Source of the DNA: Rhodoferax sp.
GTDB lineage: Bacteria; Pseudomonadota; Gammaproteobacteria; Burkholderiales; Burkholderiaceae_C
DNA: 64,000 nt
Reading direction: 5' to 3'
Assembly (NCBI GenBank): GCA_030682475.1
Contig: JAUXOA010000107.1
Location: 1 to 64,000, forward strand
Shown here piece by piece: positions 35,882 through 48,693 of the stretch. Position 1 is the stretch's first letter. Every line of letters begins with the position of its first letter. A program made the translations under genes and the position numbers. The notes beneath the pieces are model-generated. The model worked only from the letters and a program-made list of their open reading frames with translations. It ran no database searches and had not been told where the DNA came from.

Positions 35882-36069
35882 TCTTCTGACGGGCCGTCGG
35901 TGGGCATGCGAAAGCTCTCACTGGCCCAGGCGCCCAGATCAATATTTTTGCAACGCGCGCTGCAAAAAGGGCGAAATGGGTTGACGGTCGCAAAAACACT
36001 GTCGCCACCGCAGGTCGGACAGATAACCCGTTTGGCTGGTCCGGGCGGGGACGTGTTTGCGGGTTTCAT
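35839..36069 (-). CDS. yacG: YacG, zinc-finger DNA gyrase inhibitor
   Basis: A 76-residue protein with the four zinc cysteines: CPTCGG, then FRPFCSARCKNIDLGAW. YacG binds GyrB and inhibits DNA gyrase in E. coli. A GTG at 36075 is an alternative start, but ATG 36069 overlaps the zapD stop (ATGA). It ends the pilC-pilD-coaE-zapD-yacG unit. Confidence 0.9.
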   Translation of the reverse strand: MKPANTSPPGPAKRVICPTCGGDSVFATVNPFRPFCSARCKNIDLGAWASESFRMPTDGPSEDQITGAEPDSSTSH

Positions 36070-36821
36070 GAGCACAGGGCGAGTTCAAAAGCGGTGTCTT
36101 CACTGCAAGGGTGGAGTCTGTCATCGTCCTCCTGGCGCATCAGCCGGATCGACACCATGAGTCGATTGCCGCTGATCTCCGGGATCAATTCCAGTGACGA
36201 GTCGAGCGCCAGACGCAACAGTTGAAACGGTCTGCCTTGAGGCAGGTTTTGCTGAAACTGTCCCCCGTTGGCAATCACTTTTTGCGGTGCGCCGGAATCC
36301 CGCAGCAGCTTGAGCAAGACGTGAATCGAGTCCGCGAAAGGCGTTAGCGTGGCGGTCCAGCAGTGCAGATCATTTCTGCGCTGGACGCCTGTTTTGTGCT
36401 GCCACGCATAGTAGGCCGGGAGGTCGAACTCGCAGGTTCCACCAGGAATTCCGACGCGGCTTCGGATACTCATGAGCCAGTCATTCTCGGTCAGCGATTG
36501 ACCGGCTTTGCCGGGCAGACTGTTCAAGGTCTGGAAACACCGGTCCAGCTCGCTGATCACGTCATCCAGAGCGCTTTCGGAGATGGCCGGATTGCCCCGA
36601 TAAGCGTCAAGCATGTGTTTTTGTTTGTCCAGGTCTTTGAGGACATCGGACTTGAGGTCGGCACGTGCACCCACATCCATGACCTCGAAGAGGGTGGTGA
36701 GCGCGTAGTGATGGTCCAGTGCCTGCTCGCGCGAGACCAGTTCTGTCAGGCGATTAAACAGGTGTTCCAGTCGCAAATAGGTTCGGATGCGCTCGTTGAT
36801 GGGGTATTCGTAAAGGATCAC
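36066..36821 (-). CDS. zapD: ZapD, FtsZ-bundling cell-division protein
   Basis: A 251-residue protein of the ZapD (DUF1342) family, which stabilises FtsZ filaments. VILYEYPINERIRTYLRLEHLFNRL is the family N-terminus, so the GTG at 36821 is chosen; a longer frame starting at 36893 would overlap coaE. RSRVGIPGGTCEFDLPAYYAWQHK and the C-terminal LVSIRLMRQE-like region also match. The 25-base gap to coaE has only a weak ribosome-binding site. Confidence 0.88.
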   Translation of the reverse strand: MILYEYPINERIRTYLRLEHLFNRLTELVSREQALDHHYALTTLFEVMDVGARADLKSDVLKDLDKQKHMLDAYRGNPAISESALDDVISELDRCFQTLNSLPGKAGQSLTENDWLMSIRSRVGIPGGTCEFDLPAYYAWQHKTGVQRRNDLHCWTATLTPFADSIHVLLKLLRDSGAPQKVIANGGQFQQNLPQGRPFQLLRLALDSSLELIPEISGNRLMVSIRLMRQEDDDRLHPCSEDTAFELALCS

Positions 36822-36846
36822 GCTGATTTTTTCGGTGGACCAGAGG

Positions 36847-37464
36847 CTACCCGGATGATAGCCCGAAGCGATGTGAAATTTGACGGACCTCATCCGCCAG
36901 TTCGGCAAGCGACAGACCTACGTTGAAAATAACCGTGTCAGCCGCGCCCAGCCTGCGCCCGCGCCCAGCCTGCGATGACATAATTTTCTCGACCTCGTGG
37001 CGCGTTAAATGGCTGCGCGCCATGACCCGGCTGATCTGAACTTCGGGCGTGCAATCGACCACCAGCACGTGATCCACTTTTTGCCGCCAGGTGGCGGATT
37101 CAACCAGCAGGGGAATGTCAAAGACGACGCAAGCGCGCTCTTCGCTTGCGGCGGATGCGGCCTGGCTTTGTGTTGCCAGTCCCACCAGGGGGTGAATAAT
37201 GGACTCCAGCCGCTGGCGCGCCGTGGGGTCGGTGTGGATAAGGACCCGCATTTTCTCCCGGTCCAGTGCGCCGGCCGGGGTCACGAAATTCTGGCCAAAA
37301 ATGGCGGCAACCATTGGCATGGCCTGACCTCCCGGTGCTGTCAGCTCGCGGGCTATGGCATCGGCATCCACCACGGCGGCGCCCCGCTCCGCCAGGCGTT
37401 GGGCCACGGTACTTTTGCCGCTGCCAATGCCGCCAGTCAGTCCCAGCCGGATAAGGGGTAACAC
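36847..37464 (-). CDS. coaE: CoaE, dephospho-CoA kinase
   Basis: A 205-residue kinase for the last step of coenzyme A synthesis. P-loop GLTGGIGSGKSTVAQRLAERGAAVVDADAIA, then the VVDCTPEVQISRVMARSHLTRHEVEKIMSSQ block. The gene follows pilD after 3 bases in the standard pilBCD-coaE-zapD-yacG order. Confidence 0.95.
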   Translation of the reverse strand: MLPLIRLGLTGGIGSGKSTVAQRLAERGAAVVDADAIARELTAPGGQAMPMVAAIFGQNFVTPAGALDREKMRVLIHTDPTARQRLESIIHPLVGLATQSQAASAASEERACVVFDIPLLVESATWRQKVDHVLVVDCTPEVQISRVMARSHLTRHEVEKIMSSQAGRGRRLGAADTVIFNVGLSLAELADEVRQISHRFGLSSG

Positions 37465-37467
37465 AGC

Positions 37468-38310
37468 TTAGAGCCCGACGAAGCGAAGAATGGTGCCGGG
37501 GCCAAAAATCATGGCCGTCAGCCCGGCACCGGCCAGGAAGGGGCCAAAAGGCAGGTAGCCGCCTTCCCGCAAAGCGCTGGAGAACTTCATGGCAATACCG
37601 ACGATGGCGCCAATGACCGAGGCCATCAAAATGATGGGTACCAGTGCCTGCCAGCCGAACCAGGCACCTAGCGCGGCAAACAGCTTGAAGTCCCCAAAGC
37701 CCATGCCCTCCTTGCCGGTGATCAGCTTGAAGGCCCAATAGACAAGCCACAAGGACAGATAGCCGGCCACAGCGCCCCAGAACGCCGTTGCCAGGGTCAC
37801 GCTGGTCCATTGCAGTGTGGCCGCGATCAGACCCGCCCACAACAGGGGCAGGGTGATGTCATCGGGCAACAGCGTGGTATCCCAGTCGATCAAGGCCAGT
37901 GCCAGAAGCGATGCGGAAAACCCGCTCCAGGCCAGAGCGGAGGGTGTCATGCCCCAGCGCCAGGCGCAATAGAAAAACAGCGCGCCGGTTGTCAACTCCA
38001 CCAAGGGATAGCGCAGACTGATGGGCGTGGCGCAGGCGGCGCATTTTCCCCGCAAAAAAAGATAACTCACGAGCGGAATGTTTTCATACCAGCGGATCTG
38101 ATGGCCGCACTTGGAGCATCGGGAACGTGGCACTGCCAAATTGAATCTCTCTGCCGACGGCACTTCTTTTCCGGACAGCTCGACACACTCGGCCCGCCAC
38201 TGTGCTTCAAGCATGATCGGTAGGCGGTAAATCACGACATTGAGAAAGCTGCCGACAACCAAGCCCAGTACGCCGAAAACGGTGGCGTCAAACCATTGCG
38301 AAACTGGCAT
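37468..38310 (-). CDS. pilD: PilD, prepilin peptidase / N-methyltransferase
   Basis: A 280-residue membrane enzyme with about seven hydrophobic segments. The zinc cysteines CSKCGH and CAAC lie in the first cytoplasmic loop, and catalytic aspartates are in LIDWDTTLLPDD and GFGDFKLFAALGAW. It trims and methylates type IV prepilins and pseudopilins. The start overlaps the pilC stop. Confidence 0.94.
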   Translation of the reverse strand: MPVSQWFDATVFGVLGLVVGSFLNVVIYRLPIMLEAQWRAECVELSGKEVPSAERFNLAVPRSRCSKCGHQIRWYENIPLVSYLFLRGKCAACATPISLRYPLVELTTGALFFYCAWRWGMTPSALAWSGFSASLLALALIDWDTTLLPDDITLPLLWAGLIAATLQWTSVTLATAFWGAVAGYLSLWLVYWAFKLITGKEGMGFGDFKLFAALGAWFGWQALVPIILMASVIGAIVGIAMKFSSALREGGYLPFGPFLAGAGLTAMIFGPGTILRFVGL

Positions 38311-39527
38311 CAGACCACCTGGCCCAGTTTGAAGATGGGCAGGTACATGGCCACCACAATGCCGCCAATCACGGTACCCAGAATCACAATGATGATGGGC
38401 TCCATCAGGCTCGAGATGCCGGCCACCATGTCGTCAACTTCGGCTTCGTAAAAATCAGCCGCCTTGCCCAGCATGTGATCGAGCGAACCCGACTCTTCGC
38501 CGATAGAGCACATCTGCAAGACCATGGACGGAAACAGATTGGCATTGGTCATGGCCGTGGTCAGTGCGGTACCGGTTGACACCTCCTGCTGAATCTTGAT
38601 GGTGGCCGATTCATACACCCAATTGCCGGCGGCACCGCCCACGGAATCAAGTGCTTCCACCAAAGGCACGCCCGCTGCAAACATGGTGGACAGCGTTCGC
38701 GTCCAGCGTGCAATACATGACTTATCGACCAGGGTGCCAAAAATCGGCATCTTGAGCATGATGCGGTCCATCACTTGCTGCATCTTTTTGTTGCGACGCC
38801 AGGCTTGCATGAAAAAGTAAAAACCACCGCCGATACCGCCAAAAATCAACCACCAGTAGTTGACAAAAATCTCGCTGATGGCAATCACGGCAAGCGTCGG
38901 TCCGGGCAGATCGGCACCAAAATTGGAGAACACCTCTTTGAATGCCGGCACCACAAAAATCATGATAACGGCGGTGACGACAAAGGCCACGATCAGGACC
39001 GATATGGGATACATCAGGGCCGATTTGATTTTCGACTTGATGGCCTCGGTTTTTTCCATGTAAACCGCAAGCCGGTCCAGCAACTGGTCCAAAATACCGG
39101 CAGTTTCACCGGCCTCGATCAGGTTGCAATAGAGATTGTCGAAATACAGCGGGTACTTGCGAAATGCAGCGCTCAGTGAGGTTCCGGTTTCGACGTCGGT
39201 ACGGATATTGTTGAGTAGCTTGGTGACGCTGGGGTTGGGGTTTCCGCGTCCCACGATGTCAAAGGACTGCAGCAGGGGAACGCCGGCTTTCATCATGGTG
39301 GCGAGCTGGCGGGTGAAGATGGCGAGATCTTTGGGCTTGATGGACTTGCCAGAGCGCATCCAGCGCTTCTTGATCTTGGTCGGTATGACCCCCTGGCGAC
39401 GCAGGGCCGCTTGTACCTGGTTTACTCCGCCCGCTCTTGTTTCTCCGCGAACTGGTTTGCCGTTGCGGTCTTTGCCTTGCCATTCAAAGACAAATTCTTT
39501 GCTGCCTTTTGACTTTGTGCTTGCCAT
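38310..39527 (-). CDS. pilC: PilC, inner-membrane platform of the type IV pilus
   Basis: A 405-residue GspF/PilC protein with two repeated cytoplasmic domains and about three membrane segments. Motifs: LAIFTRQLATMMKAGVPLLQSFDIVG and TLSTMFAAGVPLVEALDSVGGAAGN. pilB, normally directly upstream, is absent; the 5' side is a 325-base gap followed by the secretion island. pilB may be elsewhere or may have been displaced. Confidence 0.93.
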   Translation of the reverse strand: MASTKSKGSKEFVFEWQGKDRNGKPVRGETRAGGVNQVQAALRRQGVIPTKIKKRWMRSGKSIKPKDLAIFTRQLATMMKAGVPLLQSFDIVGRGNPNPSVTKLLNNIRTDVETGTSLSAAFRKYPLYFDNLYCNLIEAGETAGILDQLLDRLAVYMEKTEAIKSKIKSALMYPISVLIVAFVVTAVIMIFVVPAFKEVFSNFGADLPGPTLAVIAISEIFVNYWWLIFGGIGGGFYFFMQAWRRNKKMQQVMDRIMLKMPIFGTLVDKSCIARWTRTLSTMFAAGVPLVEALDSVGGAAGNWVYESATIKIQQEVSTGTALTTAMTNANLFPSMVLQMCSIGEESGSLDHMLGKAADFYEAEVDDMVAGISSLMEPIIIVILGTVIGGIVVAMYLPIFKLGQVV

Positions 39528-39678
39528 AGGGTCCCCTGGGTTATTGGTTTATGGGTTGAAGCGCGCGGCTCAGCCTGGCAAGGGCAGGGGTGGGAGATTC
39601 ACGATCAGTGGTATCGACTGCGGTCATAGCCCAAGAATGTACTACGTCAGGAAGGGAACCCTCCGATCATCGCCGATT

Positions 39679-39704
39679 GCCTTCTCGATGTAAATCGAGA
39701 AGGC
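39679..39704. repeat. Perfect 11-bp hairpin in the pilC upstream region
   Basis: GCCTTCTCGAT (39679-39689) and ATCGAGAAGGC (39694-39704) form a perfect stem with a GTAA loop. There is no U-tract, so it is more likely an operator or a structured RNA than a terminator. It lies in the 325-base gap between pilC and the TnpB-like gene, which otherwise holds no recognised gene. Confidence 0.6.
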
Positions 39705-39816
39705 CGCGAGATTGCGCCGCGGGGAATCGAGCCTCCGGGTCGATCAAACACGTCTATCTTGACCGGCACGGGCTTGCCACTGTGAGGCCCTGGCAGTGTC
39801 AGAAGGAGGTGTTTAA

Positions 39817-39861
39817 AAAGTTCATATATGAGGATGTTATAATTTTTCTTATATGAACTTT
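39817..39861 (+). promoter_or_regulatory. Promoter inside a perfect 12-bp inverted repeat, overlapping the start of the TnpB-like gene
   Basis: AAAGTTCATATA (39817-39828) and TATATGAACTTT (39850-39861) are exact inverted repeats 21 bases apart. Between them is a consensus -10 hexamer TATAAT at 39838-39843. The gene's ATG (39853) lies in the right arm, about 10 bases after the -10, so transcription from it would give a nearly leaderless mRNA. A strong Shine-Dalgarno-like AGGAGGT lies at 39804-39810 but is too far upstream to serve this start. Confidence 0.6.
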
Positions 39862-40458
39862 GTGTTACACATCCCGTTGCAGACTTCGGCTGAACAGTTG
39901 ACCCGATTGCACGCCTTGCAGGCGGCGTTTGCGCGGGTCTGCAACGCGCTGGCCCCCACGGTCCAGCAGACGCGGGTGTGGAACCGGGTGGCGCTGCACC
40001 ACCTGATGTACCGCAGTTTGCGCGAGCGTTTTCCGGAGCTCGGTTCGCAGATGGTGTGCAATGCCATTTACTCGGTGTCGCGCACCTGTCGTTTGGTGTT
40101 CCAGCATCCGCAAAGTCCGTTCCATCTGTCGCGGCTGGGCGATAAACCCCTGCCTTCGCTGCGTTTTGCTGATAACTGCCCGGTGTATTTTGACCGGCAT
40201 ACGCTGAGTGTGAAGGCCGGGCAACTCTCCATGTACACGCTGGATGGCCGCATGCGTTTTGCGCTGGCCTTGAAGCCGGTGGATGAGGCCAATTTCAAAG
40301 AAAAGAAGCTGCGCGAAATCGTGCTCTCGCGCCGCCTGGACGGTGTGTTTGATCTGTGCTTCCTGTTCAGCGATGCGCAGGACAAGGAAGCGCCCGAGCC
40401 AGCCGCGCCCGATGGCGCTGAAGTTCCTGAATATGTGATGGTCGAGGAGGCCCAATGA
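39853..40458 (+). CDS. TnpB-derived protein lacking the RuvC nuclease domain
   Basis: A 201-residue protein resembling the N-terminal half of IS605-family TnpB. Seen: a start like TnpB (TSAEQLTRLHALQAAFARVCN, residues 11-31), a helical block RVALHHLMYRSLRERFPELGSQMVCNAI (45-72), and a WED-like strand block YFDRHTLSVKAGQLSMYTLDGRM (112-134) then FDLCFLFS (166-173), where TnpB has a DLVYRDGKFYLHVTVE-type strand. In TnpB the RuvC domain with its DxG motif follows; here the protein ends in a short acidic Pro/Ala-rich tail. It cannot be a nuclease. Its stop overlaps the first T1SS ABC gene by 4 bases. By analogy with nuclease-dead TnpB repressors (TldR) it may be a regulator; that is inference. 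Confidence 0.7.
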   Translation: MNFVLHIPLQTSAEQLTRLHALQAAFARVCNALAPTVQQTRVWNRVALHHLMYRSLRERFPELGSQMVCNAIYSVSRTCRLVFQHPQSPFHLSRLGDKPLPSLRFADNCPVYFDRHTLSVKAGQLSMYTLDGRMRFALALKPVDEANFKEKKLREIVLSRRLDGVFDLCFLFSDAQDKEAPEPAAPDGAEVPEYVMVEEAQ

Positions 40459-42188
40459 ATCCCAACAAACCCCCGTCAGAACTGCGCCAAGCGATCACAG
40501 CGCTGCGGCCCTATTTCAGGCAGGCGGCCTGGTTCAGCCTATTCGCCAGTCTGCTGGTGTTGGCGCCGTCGGGCTATATGCTTGAAGTGTATGACCGGGT
40601 GCTGAACAGCCGCAGCCATCTGACACTGGCCATGTTGACGCTGCTGGTGCTGGCGGCGTATGTGCTGATGGAGGTGCTGGGGTGGGTGCGCTCCGAGGTC
40701 ATGCACGAGGCGGCCATGGCGTTTGACCGGCGCATGAGTGGCCGCATTTTTGCGGCGATTTTTGAGGCCAATCTCAAGCGCATGCCGGGCGGCACGGCCC
40801 AGCCCATGAATGATTTCCGCACGGTCCGCGATTTTTTGCATGCACCGGCCTTGTTGGCCTTGATGGAGACCCCGGTGTCGCTGGTGATTCTGGTGCTGCT
40901 CTTTGCCATCAGCCCGGTCCTGGGCTGGGCCGCGGTGGTGGCGGCGGTGCTGCAGACTTTTGTCGGCTGGCTCAATGAGCGCAGCACCCAGCCGCCGCTG
41001 CTGGCGGCCAACCGCAGCGCGATGGCCGCACAGCAGTATGTCGACGGCACTTTGCGCAATGCGCAGGTGATTGAGTCGATGGGGATGCTGCGCGATATTC
41101 ACCGCCGCTGGATCGGCAAGCAGCGCGAGTTTCTGGGGCTGCAGGCGCTGGCGTCAGACCACGGTGGTTTTTACCAGGCGGTGTCGAAATTTTTGCAAAA
41201 CACGGTCAGCTCCATGCTGTTGGGGCTGGGTGCCTGGTTGTTGTTGCGCAACCAGCTTAACGGCGGAGCCGCCTATATGATCGTCGGCTCGATTCTGGGC
41301 GGACGGGTGCTGGCGCCTCTGGTCCAGATTGTGACGCAGTGGCAAACCGTGGTGAATGTACGAGAGGCTTATGGCCGGCTGGAGAACCTGTTGGGTACAG
41401 TGCCCCTGCGTCCGTCTGGCATGGCTTTACCAGCGCCGCAGGGCAAGCTGCAGGTTGAAGCCCTGGTGGCGGGTGCGCCCGGAAGCCAGGTGGCCATCCT
41501 CAAAGGCGTGAGCTTTGCGTTGCAGCCGGGCGAGGTGCTGGCGGTGGTGGGGCCGTCGGCCTCCGGCAAGACCACCCTGGCCCGCTTGCTGGTGGGCTTG
41601 TGGCCGGCGCTGAATGGCAAAGTGCGACTCGACGGCGCTGATGTGTATGCCTGGGACAAGATCGAACTGGGCCCACACGTGGGGTATTTACCGCAAGGGG
41701 TGGAGTTGTTTGACGGCACCGTGGCCGAAAATATTTCCCGCTTTGGCGAGGTCGATCAGGCCAAGGTGCAGGCTGCGGCCCGCGCCGTGGGCTTGCACGA
41801 GTTCATCATGGCGCTGCCGCAGGGCTATGACAATCCGGTCGGGCGTGAGGGCGCCATGCTGTCGGGCGGGCAGCGCCAGCGCGTGGCATTGGCCCGCGCC
41901 ATTTACGGAAATCCGGCTTTTGTGGTGCTGGACGAGCCCAACTCCAGCCTGGACGAGCAGGGCGACGCTGCGTTGACAGCTGCGATAGCGCAACTCAAGG
42001 CGCGTGGCACAACTTTCGTGGTGATGACGCACCGCACCAGCGTGTTGGGGGTGGTCGATAAGATGCTGGTGCTGCGCGATGGACAGACCCAAATGTTGGG
42101 GCCGCGTGACGATGTCTTGAAGGCACTGGCCGATGCGGTGGCGCAGGCGCGCCAACCCGTCGCGCAAGCGTCTGCAAGCACTTCATAA
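40455..42188 (+). CDS. Type I secretion ABC transporter, PrtD-like, first paralogue
   Basis: A 577-residue half-transporter of the PrtD/AprD family: about six membrane helices (residues 20-320), then an ATPase domain with Walker A GPSASGKTT, signature LSGGQRQR and Walker B FVVLDEPNSSLDE, and H-loop VMTHRTS. No C39 peptidase domain, as usual for PrtD. It would export an unfolded C-terminal-signal protein through HlyD and TolC partners. It is coupled to the TnpB-like gene by a 4-base overlap, and 16 bases from its paralogue. Confidence 0.9.
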   Translation: MNPNKPPSELRQAITALRPYFRQAAWFSLFASLLVLAPSGYMLEVYDRVLNSRSHLTLAMLTLLVLAAYVLMEVLGWVRSEVMHEAAMAFDRRMSGRIFAAIFEANLKRMPGGTAQPMNDFRTVRDFLHAPALLALMETPVSLVILVLLFAISPVLGWAAVVAAVLQTFVGWLNERSTQPPLLAANRSAMAAQQYVDGTLRNAQVIESMGMLRDIHRRWIGKQREFLGLQALASDHGGFYQAVSKFLQNTVSSMLLGLGAWLLLRNQLNGGAAYMIVGSILGGRVLAPLVQIVTQWQTVVNVREAYGRLENLLGTVPLRPSGMALPAPQGKLQVEALVAGAPGSQVAILKGVSFALQPGEVLAVVGPSASGKTTLARLLVGLWPALNGKVRLDGADVYAWDKIELGPHVGYLPQGVELFDGTVAENISRFGEVDQAKVQAAARAVGLHEFIMALPQGYDNPVGREGAMLSGGQRQRVALARAIYGNPAFVVLDEPNSSLDEQGDAALTAAIAQLKARGTTFVVMTHRTSVLGVVDKMLVLRDGQTQMLGPRDDVLKALADAVAQARQPVAQASASTS

Positions 42189-42204
42189 CTGCAAAAAAAT
42201 CAAT

Positions 42205-43944
42205 ATGAAAACACCCGAATTTTTCAAACGCAGCGAATTGACATCGACTCTCTGGCGTTTTCGTCGCGAGTTTTTGGTGGTGGGCGCCTTCAGCATGGTG
42301 GCCAATGTGCTGATGCTGGCGCCCACGCTGTACATGTTGCAGGTGTTCGACCGGGTGCTCACCAGTCAGAACGAATTGACGCTGGTGGCTTTGTCTTTGG
42401 TGACATTGTTCCTGCTTGCCGTGATGGCGTTTGCCGAATGGATGCGTTCGCGCCTGCTGGTGCGGACCGGGGTACGTCTGGACGAGCAGCTCAGTACCCA
42501 GGTGTTCAATGCCAGTTTTGAGTCTCACCTGAGCCAGTCGGGGGGCAGCCCCTCGCGGGCGTTTGGCGACTTGATCCAGATTCGTCAGTTTCTGACAGGC
42601 AACGGCATTTTTGCGTTTTTTGACGCGCCCTGGACACCGATCTACATGGCCGTGCTGTTCTTTCTGCACCCCTGGCTGGGCGTGCTCGGCGTGGTGTTTA
42701 TGCTGGTTCAGGCGGCGCTGGCCTGGTTCGGTCACCGTCATACGCTGGTGCCGTCAGAGGATGCAGCCAAAGCCAGTGCCGAAGCCGGCAGCTTCCTGCA
42801 GAGCAAGTTGCGCAATGCCGAAGTGCTTGAGTCGATGGGCATGATCCGCAACCTGCAGACGCGCTGGGCCGAGCGGCATCAGGCCTACCTGGCGCGAAGC
42901 GGCGCGGTGCAGCAATTAACGCACCGCATTACCGCCTGGAGCAAGTTCATCCGCTACAGCCAGCAGTCGTTGGCGCTGGGCGCGGGTGCCTTGCTGGTGA
43001 TTGACGGCCAGCTCACGCCGGGCGGGATGATTGCGGCCAATGTGCTGATGACGCGAGCGCTCGCACCGATTGACATGATTGTCGGTAGCTGGCGTCAGTT
43101 CATTGGCATGCGCGCTGCGTTTGCCCGGCTGGAGCAGTTGCTGATCGAGTATCCGCTGCGGGACCCGGCCTTCAAGCGGGTGACGCCGGCCGGAGAAATC
43201 ACGTTGCGCCAGGTGTTTGCGAGCGCACCGGGCCGGTCGACCCCGATTCTTCAAAATCTGAACCTGAATATGCCGGCCGGTACGGTGACGGCGATTCTGG
43301 GGCCGTCCGGCTCCGGCAAGTCCACGCTGGCGCGGGTGCTGGTGGGAATCTGGCCGGATGTGTCGGGAGATGTGCTGCTGGACGGTTTACCCATTGGGGG
43401 CTGGAACCGGATCGAGCTCGGCCCCCATGTGGGTTACCTGCCGCAGGATATCGAGTTATTTGAAGGCTCGATTGCCGAGAATATCGCCCGTTTTGGTGAG
43501 GTAGATCCTGCGCAGGTGATTGAAGCGGCACAGAGCGCGGGCTTGCACGAGATGATTTTGCGTTTTCCCAAGGGCTACGATACCGCCATCGGCGAGGCCG
43601 GCAATTTGCTCTCGGGTGGGCAGCGTCAGCGCATTGGTTTGGCGCGCGCCATCTACGGTAAGCCGGTGCTGATTGTGCTGGACGAACCCAATGCGAATCT
43701 GGATGACGCCGGTGAGGCCGCGCTCTTCAAGACGGTCGAGGAACTCAAAACCAGGGGCAAGACGGTGTTTTTGATTACCCATCGCCCAGGCGCTGTGGCG
43801 GTGGCCGACCGCATTCTGATTTTGCGCGATGGCCAGGTGCAGGCCTACGGCCCGCGTGATGCCGTGGTGGCTGCTTTGCAGGCACCACGCCCAGTACCCC
43901 CGAATCCGGCGCCGCCATCTGGCGCGTCGGCCTTGCCGGCCTGA
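42205..43944 (+). CDS. Type I secretion ABC transporter, PrtD-like, second paralogue
   Basis: A 579-residue protein with the same architecture and clear similarity to the upstream gene. Walker A GPSGSGKST, LSGGQRQR, Walker B LIVLDEPNANLDD and H-loop LITHRPG are intact, so both copies look ATP-competent. The ATG at 42205 is chosen because MKTPEFFKRSELTSTLWRFRREFLVVGAFS fits the family N-terminus. Two ABC genes in one T1SS operon suggest a heterodimer or substrate-specific pair; this cannot be decided from sequence. Confidence 0.9.
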   Translation: MKTPEFFKRSELTSTLWRFRREFLVVGAFSMVANVLMLAPTLYMLQVFDRVLTSQNELTLVALSLVTLFLLAVMAFAEWMRSRLLVRTGVRLDEQLSTQVFNASFESHLSQSGGSPSRAFGDLIQIRQFLTGNGIFAFFDAPWTPIYMAVLFFLHPWLGVLGVVFMLVQAALAWFGHRHTLVPSEDAAKASAEAGSFLQSKLRNAEVLESMGMIRNLQTRWAERHQAYLARSGAVQQLTHRITAWSKFIRYSQQSLALGAGALLVIDGQLTPGGMIAANVLMTRALAPIDMIVGSWRQFIGMRAAFARLEQLLIEYPLRDPAFKRVTPAGEITLRQVFASAPGRSTPILQNLNLNMPAGTVTAILGPSGSGKSTLARVLVGIWPDVSGDVLLDGLPIGGWNRIELGPHVGYLPQDIELFEGSIAENIARFGEVDPAQVIEAAQSAGLHEMILRFPKGYDTAIGEAGNLLSGGQRQRIGLARAIYGKPVLIVLDEPNANLDDAGEAALFKTVEELKTRGKTVFLITHRPGAVAVADRILILRDGQVQAYGPRDAVVAALQAPRPVPPNPAPPSGASALPA

Positions 43945-43978
43945 TCCCCCTGTTCCCCACTTTTTTTCCGAGTCTGAT

Positions 43979-45355
43979 ATGTCCAAACTAGATATGCTCA
44001 AACGTCTTTCATCCAAGCCGCCGTCCTCCAGCGTCCTGCCCGGCGCTTCTGATCCTGCCGCGCAGGAGCTGCCGGCTGACACCGGGCGCGCGGCCCGGAT
44101 CGGGCTGTGGGCCCTGGGCCTTGGTTTTGGCGGCTTTCTGTTATGGGCCGGTTTTGCTCCGCTGGATGAAGGGGTGCCGGCTCAGGGCATGGTCGCCATT
44201 GACACCAAGAAAAAGACGCTACAGCACCTCACCGGGGGCCTCGTCAAGGAGGTACTGGTGAGAGAGGGCGACCGCGTGAAGGAGGGGCAACTGCTGATGC
44301 GGCTTGACGAGGCCGTTGCGCGGGCGAACTTCGAGACCGTGCGGCAGCGCTACATCGGCTTGCGCGCCATGGAGGGGCGATTGCTGGCCGAGCAGAGCGG
44401 GCGGGCAAAAATAGCGTTTCATCCGGATGTGCTGGAAGCCAGCCAGGACCCGCAGATAAAGCAGGTAGTTTTGACACAGGAGCAGTTGTTTACCTCGCGT
44501 CGGGCCGCCTTGCGTGCAGACCTGCAGTCAATTGAGGAGAGCATTCTGGGTCAAGGGAGCCTGATCCAGGCTTATGGAAAGATGCAGGTCAATCGCGAGA
44601 ATCAGCAGGCGCTGCTGGCCGAGGAGCTCAATAACACGCGCGGACTGGTCAAAGAAGGTTACGCCCCGCGCAACCGGCAACTGGAGCTTGAACGCATGGC
44701 GGCCGAAGTCAGTTCAGGCATTGTCGAGTTGCAGGGCAATACTTTCCGCGCCAAACATGCTGTTGGCGAGCTAAGGCAGCGTGCCATTGTGCGGCAGCAG
44801 GAGTACCGCAAGGAGGTCGAGTCCCAACTGGCCGAAGTCGGCCGCGAGGTGCCGGGGGATGCGGAAAAGTTCCGCGTCGCCAGGGACGATCTGGGGCGCA
44901 TCGAGATCAGGTCGCCAGCGACTGGTCAGGTCGTGGGCTTGGCGTTCCAGACGGTGGGTGGGGTCATCGGGCCAGGACAGAAACTGATGGACGTGGTGCC
45001 GCAGGATCAGGCGCTGCTGGTCGAGGCCCGGGTGGCACCGCACCTGATTGACCGTGTGCATGAAGGCTTGCCGGTGGATGTCCGTTTTTCTTCTTTTGCC
45101 CATACCCCGGAACTGGTGGTGGAGGGTAAGGTGGTCTCTGTTTCTGCTGATTTGCTGACCGATCAACAAACCGGCGTCGGCTACTACCTGGCACGGGTCG
45201 GCGTTACCGCAGCCGGGTACCAGAAGTTGGGCAAGCGCCAACTCCAGCCGGGCATGCCGGTTGATGTGATTTTTGTGACGGGTGAGCGCTCCATGCTGAC
45301 CTATCTGCTAAGCCCATTGACCAAGCGGATGGCCGCGTCCATGAAGGAGGAGTGA
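43979..45355 (+). CDS. HlyD/PrtE-type periplasmic adaptor of the T1SS
   Basis: A 458-residue membrane-fusion protein with one N-terminal membrane helix (about residues 40-58, IGLWALGLGFGGFLLWAGFAPL), a lipoyl-like region (QHLTGGLVKEVLVREGDRVKEGQLLMRLDE), a coiled-coil hairpin (about 120-270), and a C-terminal beta-barrel half. It bridges the ABC transporter and the outer-membrane channel. It starts 34 bases after the second ABC gene and ends 4 bases before the TolC-type gene. Confidence 0.92.
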   Translation: MSKLDMLKRLSSKPPSSSVLPGASDPAAQELPADTGRAARIGLWALGLGFGGFLLWAGFAPLDEGVPAQGMVAIDTKKKTLQHLTGGLVKEVLVREGDRVKEGQLLMRLDEAVARANFETVRQRYIGLRAMEGRLLAEQSGRAKIAFHPDVLEASQDPQIKQVVLTQEQLFTSRRAALRADLQSIEESILGQGSLIQAYGKMQVNRENQQALLAEELNNTRGLVKEGYAPRNRQLELERMAAEVSSGIVELQGNTFRAKHAVGELRQRAIVRQQEYRKEVESQLAEVGREVPGDAEKFRVARDDLGRIEIRSPATGQVVGLAFQTVGGVIGPGQKLMDVVPQDQALLVEARVAPHLIDRVHEGLPVDVRFSSFAHTPELVVEGKVVSVSADLLTDQQTGVGYYLARVGVTAAGYQKLGKRQLQPGMPVDVIFVTGERSMLTYLLSPLTKRMAASMKEE

Positions 45356-45359
45356 GCAC

Positions 45360-46733
45360 ATGATGCGCAATACTTTGAATACCTTGAGCAGGGCAAGCGC
45401 CCGGCCGTTCAAGCGCCTGGTGTTGGGCGGCACGCTGCTGTCCTTGTCGATGGCGGTCTGGCCGATCGACTTGTTACAGGCTTACGAGGCGGCACGAAAA
45501 CAGGACGCTACCATTCTGGCGTCTCGCGCCGCAACCGAGGCCGGACGCGAACGCCTGCCGCAGGCGCGTGCGCAGTTGTTGCCCAATGTGGCGGCCAGTA
45601 TGGCGAGCAATAACAACCAGTTGACCAGTAGCGCCCCCAATTTTTTGGGGCAGGAACAAACTTCCAGCACCAATTATCCCAGCAGCAACCAGACCCTGAC
45701 AGTGCGCCAGCCCTTGTTTCGCCCCTACCTGACGGCGCAACACCGGCAAGCCAAGGCACAGGTGGATGACGTCGATGCCTTGCTCGCACAAGATGAGCAA
45801 AACCTGGCCGTGCGGGTTAGCGGTGCTTATTTTGAAGCCATGCTGACGCATGAACAACTGGCACTTGTTTTGGCGCAGCGCACGGCCAACATGACACAAC
45901 TGGATGCCGCCCGCAAGTCATTCGCGGCCGGTGCCGGTACCCGCACCGACGTGGACGAAGCGCAGGCCCGGCTTGACATGACCCTGGCCCTGGAGATCGA
46001 AGCCAGAGCGAATGTGGCCTACACCTTGCGGCAATTAGAGGCCCTGGTCAACCAGCCGATTGACAGACTGGCGACGCTCGATGTATCAAAGCTTGAGCTG
46101 CTCGACCCGCAGCCCAACCGTCTGGACGACTGGACCGGACGTGCTGAGCAGAACAGCCCTCAGTTGCAATCTCTCAGGGCCCAGGTTGAAGTGGCGCGTC
46201 AGGAGGTGGAGAAGGCTAATTCCGGACACTATCCAACGCTCGATGCGGTAGTGCAATGGTCGCGCAGCGAAAGCGAAAACGTCACCAATATCAAATCTCG
46301 TTACACCAATTCAGCCATCGGCTTGCAGCTCAATATCCCGATTTTTGCGGGCGGTTACGTCAACTCTTTGGTCCGACAAGCCCGCGCTGGACAGGAGCGT
46401 TCCACGCAAGCGCTGGAGGCTGGCCGGCGTGACCTGGGGCTGCGTGTACACAAAGAGTTTCGGGGTGTCACTGAAAACGTCCCCAGAATCAAGGCGCTGG
46501 AGCAGGCGCTGCGTTCGGCTGATCAACTGGTGTTGTCAAGCCGCAAGTCGTTTCAGGCGGGTAGCCGCACGCTGCTTGACGTGTTGAACGCCGAGCAGCA
46601 ACGTGTGCTGGTTCTGCGCGACCTGGCGCAAGCGCGCTATCTGTATCTGATATCAAATATCAGGCTACTCGCTCTGGTGGGTGGGGCTGATGTCGAGGCC
46701 GTGGTTGCGATTAACCGTTTGCTGCAGAACTGA
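45360..46733 (+). CDS. TolC-type outer-membrane channel of the T1SS
   Basis: A 457-residue outer-membrane factor with a signal-peptide-like N-terminus (RLVLGGTLLSLSMAVWPIDLLQAY). Paired OEP repeats (QAYEAARKQDATILASRAATEAGRERLPQARAQLLPNVAAS and the C-terminal half) form the TolC barrel-coil. A second ATG is 3 bases downstream. It completes a full T1SS set. No RTX-like substrate gene is seen in the window. Confidence 0.9.
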   Translation: MMRNTLNTLSRASARPFKRLVLGGTLLSLSMAVWPIDLLQAYEAARKQDATILASRAATEAGRERLPQARAQLLPNVAASMASNNNQLTSSAPNFLGQEQTSSTNYPSSNQTLTVRQPLFRPYLTAQHRQAKAQVDDVDALLAQDEQNLAVRVSGAYFEAMLTHEQLALVLAQRTANMTQLDAARKSFAAGAGTRTDVDEAQARLDMTLALEIEARANVAYTLRQLEALVNQPIDRLATLDVSKLELLDPQPNRLDDWTGRAEQNSPQLQSLRAQVEVARQEVEKANSGHYPTLDAVVQWSRSESENVTNIKSRYTNSAIGLQLNIPIFAGGYVNSLVRQARAGQERSTQALEAGRRDLGLRVHKEFRGVTENVPRIKALEQALRSADQLVLSSRKSFQAGSRTLLDVLNAEQQRVLVLRDLAQARYLYLISNIRLLALVGGADVEAVVAINRLLQN

Positions 46734-46791
46734 GCGTTAAGCTTGAACGAACAGGAGCAGGCGTAAAGGAATCTGCCCCCTTTTAGCGCGA

Positions 46792-47298
46792 TCAATGCAA
46801 TGAACAGATCGCTGCCGATGGGGCGTCGCCAAGCGCTCCAAACCACTGCGGCCAGGCATGTTTGGGCCATTCGGCGGTATCGAACAGGCGGTGAAGAATA
46901 CCCAGCCACTGCCGCAACTCGGTACCGCTCAGCCTCAACTGTGCAGTGCCTGTTGCCCGCCACTTGAAGGTTAAGGTATAGCCATACAGGCTTCGCGCCA
47001 AATCTACCGCTTCCAGCAAAGCTTCACCCTTCGCCACCGTGGCTTCTACCGGCCGGCCGGGTTTGAGTTGTGCCTGCGCGGCCGCCTGCTCCCACGCATG
47101 CAGGCTGGGTACGGACTGTCCTGCGGCCTGGATTTTCAGATCATCCTCCAGCCAGTTGCTCAAGGCACCCGCCAAGCGATTGGCCAGGCGTTGCGTGAGC
47201 CAAAGCAACAGCACCTTGCCATCGCTGTCTTGCACACTCAGGCAGATGCGGTCTTGCGTCGGGTCAAAACACTGCGTAATTTTTTGGACAATAAACAT
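46792..47298 (-). CDS. Hypothetical protein at the edge of the T1SS island
   Basis: A 168-residue protein from ATG 47298 (an upstream start at 47325 is possible). I do not recognise the family. It has no signal peptide or membrane helix. It has helix-rich blocks VLLLWLTQRLANRLAGALSNWLEDDLK and LSGTELRQWLGILHRLFDTAEWPKHAWPQWFG and a beta-like N-terminus MFIVQKITQCFDPTQDRICLSVQ. It is convergent with the TolC gene (58-base gap). Possibly linked to the T1SS. Confidence 0.6.
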   Translation of the reverse strand: MFIVQKITQCFDPTQDRICLSVQDSDGKVLLLWLTQRLANRLAGALSNWLEDDLKIQAAGQSVPSLHAWEQAAAQAQLKPGRPVEATVAKGEALLEAVDLARSLYGYTLTFKWRATGTAQLRLSGTELRQWLGILHRLFDTAEWPKHAWPQWFGALGDAPSAAICSLH

Positions 47299-47394
47299 AG
47301 CCCTTACTCCTTGCCGCCTATGCATAAAGGGGTCAAACCCGTTTTATCATGCTTTCGCTTTCGACGTTCCAAGCTCGGCAGGCTGCCAGGCAGA

Positions 47395-48693
47395 TCAGTG
47401 CAGCGCCCGCTCCAGAAAGTCAGCGGCTCTCAGGCATTGGCGGTCTGCGCGCGGCCCGCCAATGATTTGCAGACCCATCGGGTTGCCAGTCACGCCCACG
47501 GCGCCCGCTACATTCACGCAAGGCAAACCCAGCAGCGTCCAGGCGCGGTTGAACGTGGAAACGCCCGTGCTATCAAACCCCAGCGGCGCTTCGTCGGGTG
47601 CGCTGGGCGTCATCAACACGTCAAACTGACTGAGCCAGTCGACACCGGCCCAGCGCGCCGCAGCGGCGGTATTTTGCGCCGCTTCATAGGCCCGCGCACT
47701 GATGTGGCGCGCGGCGAGCAGGTAGTCGCGCAGTACCGCCGACAGCGCCTGTGGGTGCCGGTCCAGTTGGTCGACCTCGCGCGCCAGTGCGCGCCAGGCT
47801 TCGTAGCCCTGGATCACATCCTGCGCCTCAAACACGTTTTTCATCCAGGCTGGCAGGGTGACGCTTAGCACCTCGGCACCGGCCGCCCGTAACGCCTGGC
47901 AGCCGGTTCCTATCGCCAACTGCGCGCTGGGCGATACCTGGCCCCAAGGGTAGGACTCGGGCACCCCGACCCGCCACGGCCGGGTCGGCGTTTCATCCTG
48001 TGCTGGCTCAAGCGCCAGCGCATGACCGCTCACGGCTTGGGCAAACCAGGCCACCTCGGACACGCTGGGCGCAAACAGGCCGACGGTGTCAAGCGACCAC
48101 GAAAAGCATTTGAGGCCAGCCGTCGGCAACAGGGTAAAGCTGGGCTTGAAACCGGTGACGCCGCAGTACGACGCCGGACGAATGATGGAGCCGCCGGTTT
48201 GGCTGCCAATCGCAAAAGACACGAGGCCGGCCGCGACCGCCGCCGCCGATCCGGCTGAAGAGCCGCCCGGCGTGCGACCTGGTGCATTGGGGTTGCGTGT
48301 GGCGGTCGGGTTGAGAAAAGCAAATTCTGTGGTGCTCGATTTTCCGATCACCAGACCACCCGCACGGCGGATGGCGCTAACCATGGCCGCGTCCGTGCGT
48401 GCGTTTGCACCCGCGTAAAGTGGTGAACCATAGCTGGTGGGCAGATCGCAGGTGTCGAAGATGTCCTTGACGGCAACCGCAAGGCCTTGCAGCGGACCCA
48501 CGCGCCCGCTCTGTTTTAGCTGCTCCAGGTGTGCAAGCGCAGTGGGCAGGTCCAGCCGGGCGACAAATGCGCCCAGCGTGGCGTCTGTAGCGTCGATACG
48601 TGCAAAGGTGTCGGCGAGCAGGGTGGCGGCATCGAGGGTGCCCGCCGCCAGTTGTGTGGCGGTGGCAATTGCTGTAAGTGTTTGATGGCTCAT
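47395..48693 (-). CDS. Amidase-signature hydrolase
   Basis: A 432-residue amidase. The Ser-cisSer-Lys triad is visible: GKSSTTEF (Lys region), GGSSAGSAAAVAAGL (cis-Ser) and GSQTGGSIIRPASYCGVTGFKPSF (nucleophile serine region). The start at 48693 (MSHQTLTAIATATQLAAG) gives the family N-terminus. The substrate is unknown; the similarity is to general amidases rather than GatA. It is divergent from clpS across a 289-base gap in which I see no gene. Confidence 0.9.
   Translation of the reverse strand: MSHQTLTAIATATQLAAGTLDAATLLADTFARIDATDATLGAFVARLDLPTALAHLEQLKQSGRVGPLQGLAVAVKDIFDTCDLPTSYGSPLYAGANARTDAAMVSAIRRAGGLVIGKSSTTEFAFLNPTATRNPNAPGRTPGGSSAGSAAAVAAGLVSFAIGSQTGGSIIRPASYCGVTGFKPSFTLLPTAGLKCFSWSLDTVGLFAPSVSEVAWFAQAVSGHALALEPAQDETPTRPWRVGVPESYPWGQVSPSAQLAIGTGCQALRAAGAEVLSVTLPAWMKNVFEAQDVIQGYEAWRALAREVDQLDRHPQALSAVLRDYLLAARHISARAYEAAQNTAAAARWAGVDWLSQFDVLMTPSAPDEAPLGFDSTGVSTFNRAWTLLGLPCVNVAGAVGVTGNPMGLQIIGGPRADRQCLRAADFLERALH

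What the first reader, a model, noticed from the sequence alone, without database searches (positions are those of the whole stretch)
39853..40458. A RuvC-less TnpB derivative fused into a type I secretion operon
The 201-residue protein carries TnpB-like N-terminal blocks (residues 11-72 helical, 112-134 and 166-173 WED-like) but ends before the RuvC domain, so it cannot cut DNA. It starts at a palindromic promoter and its stop overlaps the first T1SS ABC gene by 4 bases. Nuclease-dead TnpB repressors (TldR) are known beside flagellin and ABC-transporter genes, but they keep an inactivated RuvC; a protein with RuvC wholly lost, operon-coupled to a T1SS, would be a distinct case. The absence of a downstream guide-RNA region is notable.
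Basis: partly seen in the sequence, partly recalled or inferred. Interest (0 to 1): 0.85.

Follow-up and report, generated by a model that had tools for sequence, protein, structure and literature searches.

The report
Half a TnpB running secretion genes
A conserved bacterial protein that is the front half of a transposon's RNA-guided DNA cutter, with the cutting half gone, sits at the head of a protein-secretion operon beside its own dedicated promoter sites, and probably works as a switch that reads DNA without a guide RNA.

Summary
Pfam, NCBIfam and PHROGs do not know the 201-residue protein, but its family profile hits full-length TnpB (E 1e-39) and its AlphaFold model (pLDDT 88.5) matches Cas12f/TnpB over residues 1-178. 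It ends before RuvC. It is no fragment: 78 of 80 homologues are followed directly by the T1SS ABC gene (two contigs end there), selection is purifying, and 31 of 31 sampled RuvC-less proteins form one clade. New here: a 12-bp site, TTCATATAGGAA, flanks the -10 box (upstream arm 74 of 77, start-codon arm 66 of 77). The strict pair occurs in 200 family genomes only at this promoter (9 of 9 sites). It begins with TTCAT, the sequence bordering related TnpB elements (12 of 12 left ends), their likely TAM; a similar site overlaps the tnpB start in 9 of 10 near relatives. One genome that lost the gene keeps a decayed operator. No omega-RNA was found. Best reading: an autoregulator of the T1SS operon using TnpB's TAM-reading WED/REC module, probably without guide RNA. 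Binding by the protein is inferred, not shown.

The parts
39853..40458 (+). RuvC-less TnpB derivative ('Q'), 201 aa: WED-REC-WED module (1-178) plus acidic tail ending in the conserved PEYVMVEE motif
39821..39832 (+). upstream operator arm TTCATATATGAG (family consensus TTCATATAGGAA)
   Evidence: an upstream arm is present in 74 of 77 homologous promoters
39846..39857 (-). start-codon operator arm (plus strand TTCTTATATGAA), overlaps the ATG of Q
   Evidence: present in 66 of 77 homologous promoters
39838..39843 (+). -10 hexamer TATAAT between the two arms; implies a very short or absent 5' leader
   Evidence: TAnnnT found in 74 of 78 promoters; the transcription start itself is inferred
40455..42188 (+). 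T1SS ABC protein 1 (PrtD type, TIGR01842); start overlaps the stop of Q; its ribosome-binding-like GAGGAGG lies in the VEE codons of Q
42205..43944 (+). T1SS ABC protein 2 (PrtD type); start chosen by eye
43979..45355 (+). T1SS membrane fusion protein (HlyD family); start chosen by eye
   Evidence: (scanned from 43973)
45360..46733 (+). T1SS outer membrane protein (TolC family)

Best explanation
Q descends from a TnpB nuclease of an IS200/IS605-type element that lost its whole RuvC/zinc-ribbon half, apparently once, and was fixed as the first gene of a type I secretion operon. It keeps the WED-REC-WED module that in TnpB reads the target-adjacent motif (TAM). It most likely binds the 12-bp site TTCATATAGGAA (TTCAT, the likely TAM of its relatives, plus ATAGGAA) on both sides of its own -10 box and so represses, or otherwise sets, transcription of the Q-ABC-ABC-HlyD-TolC operon. 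It probably needs no guide RNA. Shown here: ancestry, absence of RuvC, operon linkage, the operator and its near-confinement to this promoter, the TTCAT/TCAT border of related elements. Inferred: that Q is what binds the operator, that the effect is repression, that no RNA is needed.
For: Ancestry: profile hits on full-length TnpB (PF07282 and/or PF01385 in 4 of 4 scanned), fold match to Cas12f/TnpB, tree. In ISDra2 TnpB the TAM duplex is bound by WED and REC, and the omega-RNA scaffold mainly by WED and RuvC (PMC10097598, passages), so Q keeps the DNA reader and lost much of the RNA holder. Model helices 45-59 and 64-84 have 7 of 15 and 13 of 21 residues invariant in 59 sequences; that they hold the TAM contacts is inferred from the fold. 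Operator. Border of related elements: TTCAT in 12 of 12 tnpA-tnpB left ends, TCAT in 5 of 10 nearer, tnpA-less ones. Same kind of site at the tnpB start codon in 9 of 10 near relatives and at 0 of 10 other starts checked. Natural loss of Q with a decayed operator (by eye). No omega-RNA found; no TnpB zinc-ribbon domain in the window's genome.
Against: No binding was measured. The TTCAT match is a 5-base coincidence; I estimate, without a calculation, that chance could give it about one time in a hundred. 11 of 77 promoters lack a start-codon arm and 3 of 77 an upstream arm; 8 of 17 Q genomes lack the strict paired pattern and one of 15 (G223) has no site within one mismatch at Q. One-mismatch sites elsewhere in 15 Q genomes number 14 against 7 for the reversed control. 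The site is a near-palindrome (TTCNTATANGAA), which TAM reading alone does not predict. About six conserved bases after TTCAT resemble the TldR seed length, so a guide RNA encoded elsewhere is not excluded. The omega-RNA model missed one true distant relative (L098). Two of the 10 comparison starts have 9-10 of 12 matches 21-29 bases upstream.
Confidence: 0.6

Rival explanations
1. RNA-guided repressor without RuvC: Q still carries a short guide RNA, encoded elsewhere, whose seed reads ATAGGA next to the TAM TTCAT at both operator arms.
For: Conserved bases after TTCAT number about six, like the nt 1-6 seed of TldR (figure legend). TldR is a known TnpB-derived RNA-guided repressor.
Against: Much of the omega-RNA contact surface lies in the lost RuvC. 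No omega-RNA found in the window, 80 loci or own genome (limited sensitivity). A like site stands at the tnpB start of related transposons, whose guides should differ with each insertion (inference). The site is near-palindromic.
Confidence: 0.12
2. Another host regulator binds the operator; Q itself does something else for the secretion system, for example binds RNA or acts as a chaperone.
For: Operator and Q are linked only by position. Q has a conserved acidic tail of its own.
Against: The strict pair was found at no other place in 200 genomes, and 8 of 8 exact sites in 15 Q genomes lie at Q; a general regulator should have more targets. Seven fetched loci with an ABC1-like gene but no Q hold no TTCATATA/TATATGAA core (two of the seven, at 48% identity, may not be orthologues). 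Related transposons already carry such a site at tnpB.
Confidence: 0.2
3. Q is an inert relic kept only as a leader for translational coupling to the ABC gene.
For: Four-base overlap in 70 of 80 loci, with a ribosome-binding-like sequence inside its last codons in 62 of 71 overlapping loci, the window's own copy L001 counted.
Against: dN/dS 0-0.115 in 11 of 11 pairs; 57 invariant columns in 59 sequences. Where Q is lost, a short remnant stands before ABC1.
Confidence: 0.03

Closest known systems
TldR, TnpB-like nuclease-dead repressors
   Same: Domesticated TnpB associated with non-transposon genes, no nuclease activity expected, promoter target beside a TAM
   Different: TldR carries an inactivated RuvC domain and a guide RNA and acts RNA-guided (introduction and passages of PMC13418256); Q has no RuvC, no omega-RNA was found, and its site lies at its own promoter, mostly in two copies
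TnpB of IS200/IS605 elements (closest: L086 and IMG/VR elements L156-L165)
   Same: WED-REC-WED module, shared RxWNRVALHHLxY and GSQMxCNAI blocks, TTCAT/TCAT bordering the elements, like site at the start codon
   Different: TnpB has RuvC and zinc ribbon (about 370-440 aa against 201), an omega-RNA and transposon ends
Cas12f, Cas12k, Cas12m
   Same: Fold of the N-terminal half; Cas12m2 silences without dsDNA cleavage (abstract in listing); that Cas12k does not cut is recalled
   Different: All keep a RuvC fold and a guide RNA (recalled in part)
PrtD/HlyD/TolC type I secretion operons
   Same: Transporter genes of all three kinds present
   Different: Two ABC genes in tandem and a TnpB-derived first gene; Q is absent from several related operons, so it is not a core part

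Membership tests
TldR | Descends from TnpB | tested here: met
TldR | RuvC domain present but inactivated | tested here: not met
   201 aa, ends before RuvC-I; lengths in the 80 loci 192-227 aa, the 192 cut by a contig end
TldR | Guide RNA, adjacent to the gene | tested here: not met
   no omega-RNA match in window, 80 loci or own genome; ABC gene begins at the stop codon. The model has limited sensitivity, and a guide encoded elsewhere is not excluded
TldR | Represses transcription | not testable with these tools
   inferred from the operator position only
TnpB nuclease | WED and REC domains | tested here: met
TnpB nuclease | RuvC catalytic residues and zinc ribbon | tested here: not met
TnpB nuclease | Lies in a transposon with ends | tested here: not met
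   conserved operon position; gene flanked by operator and ABC gene
T1SS core component | Present in all such operons | tested here: not met
   ABC1-like genes of 53-70% identity without Q in 5 fetched loci, two more at 48%

The most novel reading that the evidence does not exclude
An RNA-guided nuclease was turned into a conventional, protein-only transcription factor: the TAM-reading half of TnpB became a stand-alone DNA-binding domain with a 12-bp TAM-containing operator. This self-control was already present in the parent transposon, at the tnpB start codon, and was carried into a secretion operon.
Probability: 0.45. Interest if true: 0.93.

Novelty: new variant of a known kind. Interest (0 to 1): 0.86.

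Why it matters
TnpB and Cas12 are thought of as RNA-guided throughout. A natural protein that keeps only the DNA-reading front half would show that TAM recognition can stand alone as a gene switch, would give a 200-residue minimal domain for studying it, and would add a guide-free route by which transposon nucleases become regulators. It also offers a clean test of whether TnpB proteins control their own genes.

Tried and rejected
Family libraries gave nothing for the protein (Pfam over 59 members gave only scattered weak hits). The PDB profile search with Q alone found no relative; the link came from fold searches and intermediate TnpBs. A wider regulon, such as RTX substrates, was not supported: 0 off-promoter sites at 11 of 12 or better in 983,338 bp of loci; 14 scattered one-mismatch sites in 15 Q genomes against 7 for the reversed control; in the own genome 3 of 4 one-mismatch sites lie elsewhere, control 1. 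First motif counts double-counted because the site is near-palindromic; one search replaces them. Weak omega-RNA hits in L058/L051 look like a terminator hairpin by eye; those in L041 and L059 (14.9 and 13.7 bits) were not looked at. A residue-by-residue map of the ISDra2 TAM contacts onto Q was not obtained: the PDB sequence alignments to TnpB covered only its C-terminal half. Left ends were not resolved for L158, L159, L163 and L165; L164 was dropped as a near copy of L162; L088, a seventh G019 copy, has another sequence upstream and no shared left-end block, and L090, L091, L094, L095 and L172 gave none either. Print: searches listed no title or abstract start about a RuvC-less TnpB or a TnpB relative in a T1SS operon; I read listings only, apart from two papers in part. 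The founding TldR paper was not found in the library and is recalled.

Full report
What is there. ORF 39853-40458 encodes 201 residues and its stop overlaps the start of the first ABC gene of a complete T1SS operon. I call it Q. Pfam, NCBIfam and PHROGs have no match for it.

It is a real, old gene. A scan of GTDB genomes gave 150 relatives among 168 candidate stretches, of which the best 80 (61-87% identity) were kept. In 78 of these 80 the T1SS ABC protein follows, mostly at once and always with a gap under 100 bases after the Q reading frame; in L004 and L018 the contig ends 77 and 1 bases after the match. The 4-base stop/start overlap is kept in 70 of 80. Among 200 genomes of the family, 20 gave a match at E 0.001 or better: 16 have full-length Q (the window's own included), one a copy cut by a contig end, and three only weak matches to short ORFs. 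The 17 with Q all have ABC1 next to it. dN/dS is 0-0.115 in 11 of 11 chosen pairs. The own genome has one copy.

One origin. In a tree of the N-terminal half (169 columns; 30 Q, Q-like L154 and 21 TnpBs; rooted by me on five distant TnpBs) the 31 RuvC-less proteins form one clade (UFBoot 96) among full-length TnpBs; its exact place there is weakly supported (74-79). L154 was the only match besides the own genome in 369 genomes of the class at E 1e-6; it is the deepest branch and also precedes a T1SS-type ABC gene.

The operator. Upstream of Q nearly every locus carries the 12-bp site TTCATATAGGAA, a near-palindrome, on both sides of the -10 box. Of 77 loci with at least 60 bases upstream, 74 have the upstream arm, 66 the arm over the start codon, 69 two or more sites (9 of 12 or better). 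Mononucleotide shuffles gave one or more in 348 and two or more in 12 of 3850; windows 400-488 bases upstream gave a site in 0 of 74. In the 74 upstream arms TTCATATA, then G and A at places 10 and 11, occur 73-74 times each and the G at place 9 63 times; arms were picked by matching, which inflates these counts. TAnnnT lies upstream of the start in 74 of 78 promoters, at -17 or -16 in 47 of the 74. That implies a leader of only a few bases and arms that overlap the promoter spacer and the start point, an arrangement that would block RNA polymerase (inference).

It belongs nearly to Q alone. The strict pair occurs in 9 of 200 family genomes, 9 of 9 times at the Q promoter, with 0 for the reversed pattern; the other 8 of 17 Q genomes lack the strict pair. 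In 15 Q genomes 8 of 8 exact sites and 18 of 32 one-mismatch rows lie at Q (one site listed twice), 14 elsewhere; the reversed control gives 7; G223 has none at Q. No further sites of 11 of 12 or better were found in 983,338 bp of loci. Seven fetched loci with an ABC1-like gene but no Q (five at 53-70% identity, two at 48% that may not be orthologues) hold no TTCATATA or TATATGAA. One of them, L135, looks by eye like a natural deletion: a promoter with decayed arms and the last dozen codons of Q remain in front of ABC1. So the T1SS operon can be kept without Q, and in this one case the operator has decayed.

The TAM link. TnpB is an RNA-guided nuclease that needs a TAM. In ISDra2 TnpB the TAM duplex sits between WED and REC, with contacts at Y52, S56, K76, F77, Q80, T123 and N124, and the omega-RNA scaffold is recognized mainly by WED and RuvC (PMC10097598, passages). 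I therefore asked what borders Q's relatives. In all 12 element copies with a recognisable tnpA-tnpB left end (six in G019, three in G094, two in G149, one in a Methylomarinovum plasmid), the variable flank runs into TTCAT followed by AGAA. In two of these (L087, L098) TTCAT falls inside what looks by eye like the host's own coding sequence, so there it belongs to the target. In the tnpA-less elements closest to Q, five of ten left ends show TCAT (L156, L157, L160, L161, L162), L086 probably does too, and four were not resolved. Calling TTCAT the TAM rests on the rule, recalled, that the left flank of such elements is the TAM. Q's operator begins with TTCAT in the same polarity.

The site is older than Q. 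In 9 of 10 of those tnpA-less elements a match of 9 of 12 or better to the same site overlaps the tnpB start codon, as in Q; L159 is the exception. Of ten other starts checked (five from other TnpB groups, partly with guessed start codons, and five from tnpA-tnpB elements) none has it at the start, though two have 9-10 of 12 matches 21-29 bases upstream. The parent transposon thus seems already to have carried one arm, and Q's operon gained the second. TnpB itself is the natural candidate to bind it (inference).

No guide RNA found. A model of the omega-RNA ends of eight related elements finds those of three further TnpB loci at 36-72 bits but misses the distant L098; in the window and 80 Q loci the best score is 17.9, and 17.0 in the own genome. 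The own genome has no TnpB zinc-ribbon domain. Rfam gives nothing at 36000-48000.

Reading. The most economical account is that Q kept TnpB's DNA reader, lost its cutter and much of its RNA holder, and controls its own T1SS operon by binding the paired TTCAT-containing site. Autoregulation is strongly suggested; that Q itself binds, that it represses, and that it needs no RNA are inferences. A guided version is not excluded: TldR repression is lost on mutations in seed nucleotides 1-6 (figure legend), and about six bases are conserved after TTCAT.

Known or new. TldR is the nearest kind: exapted, nuclease-dead, RNA-guided (introduction and passages of PMC13418256; the founding paper is recalled). 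By what was tested, Q lacks two of its features, a retained RuvC and an adjacent guide RNA. Eight literature searches listed no title or abstract start describing such a protein; the library lacks most subscription papers.

Noticed in passing
L142 (G259), L143 (G225), L144 (G390): ORFs of 103-119 aa matching only the helical REC part of the Q profile (best E about 6e-10): possibly a still smaller relative; context not read.
   Followed up: partly
L156-L165 and L086, tnpB start codons: Related TnpB transposons carry sites like TTTCCTATATGA over the tnpB start with a -10-like box just upstream, suggesting leaderless tnpB mRNA and self-control of TnpB.
   Followed up: partly
L135 (G363): Apparent natural internal deletion of Q: decayed promoter and last codons remain in front of ABC1 (by eye).
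   Followed up: partly
L141 (G208): Q with an extra N-terminal stretch of roughly 80 residues whose likely start codon still lies in the operator arm.
   Followed up: no
G000:C44:23587 (L104): A lone TTCTTATATGAA site over the start codon of a gene that looks by eye like dihydrolipoamide dehydrogenase; may be chance, as the reversed control gave one match.
   Followed up: no
L015, L019, L031, L041, L042, L043, L072; own genome C2 and C101: ORFs with three or more GGxGxD repeats lie near Q in 7 of 80 loci, and two RTX ORFs lie elsewhere in the own genome: possible T1SS substrates.
   Followed up: partly
window 36847-39527, minus strand: A pilC/gspF-like gene (below the curated cut-offs), then by eye a pilD-type peptidase and coaE, lie directly upstream on the other strand.
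   Followed up: no
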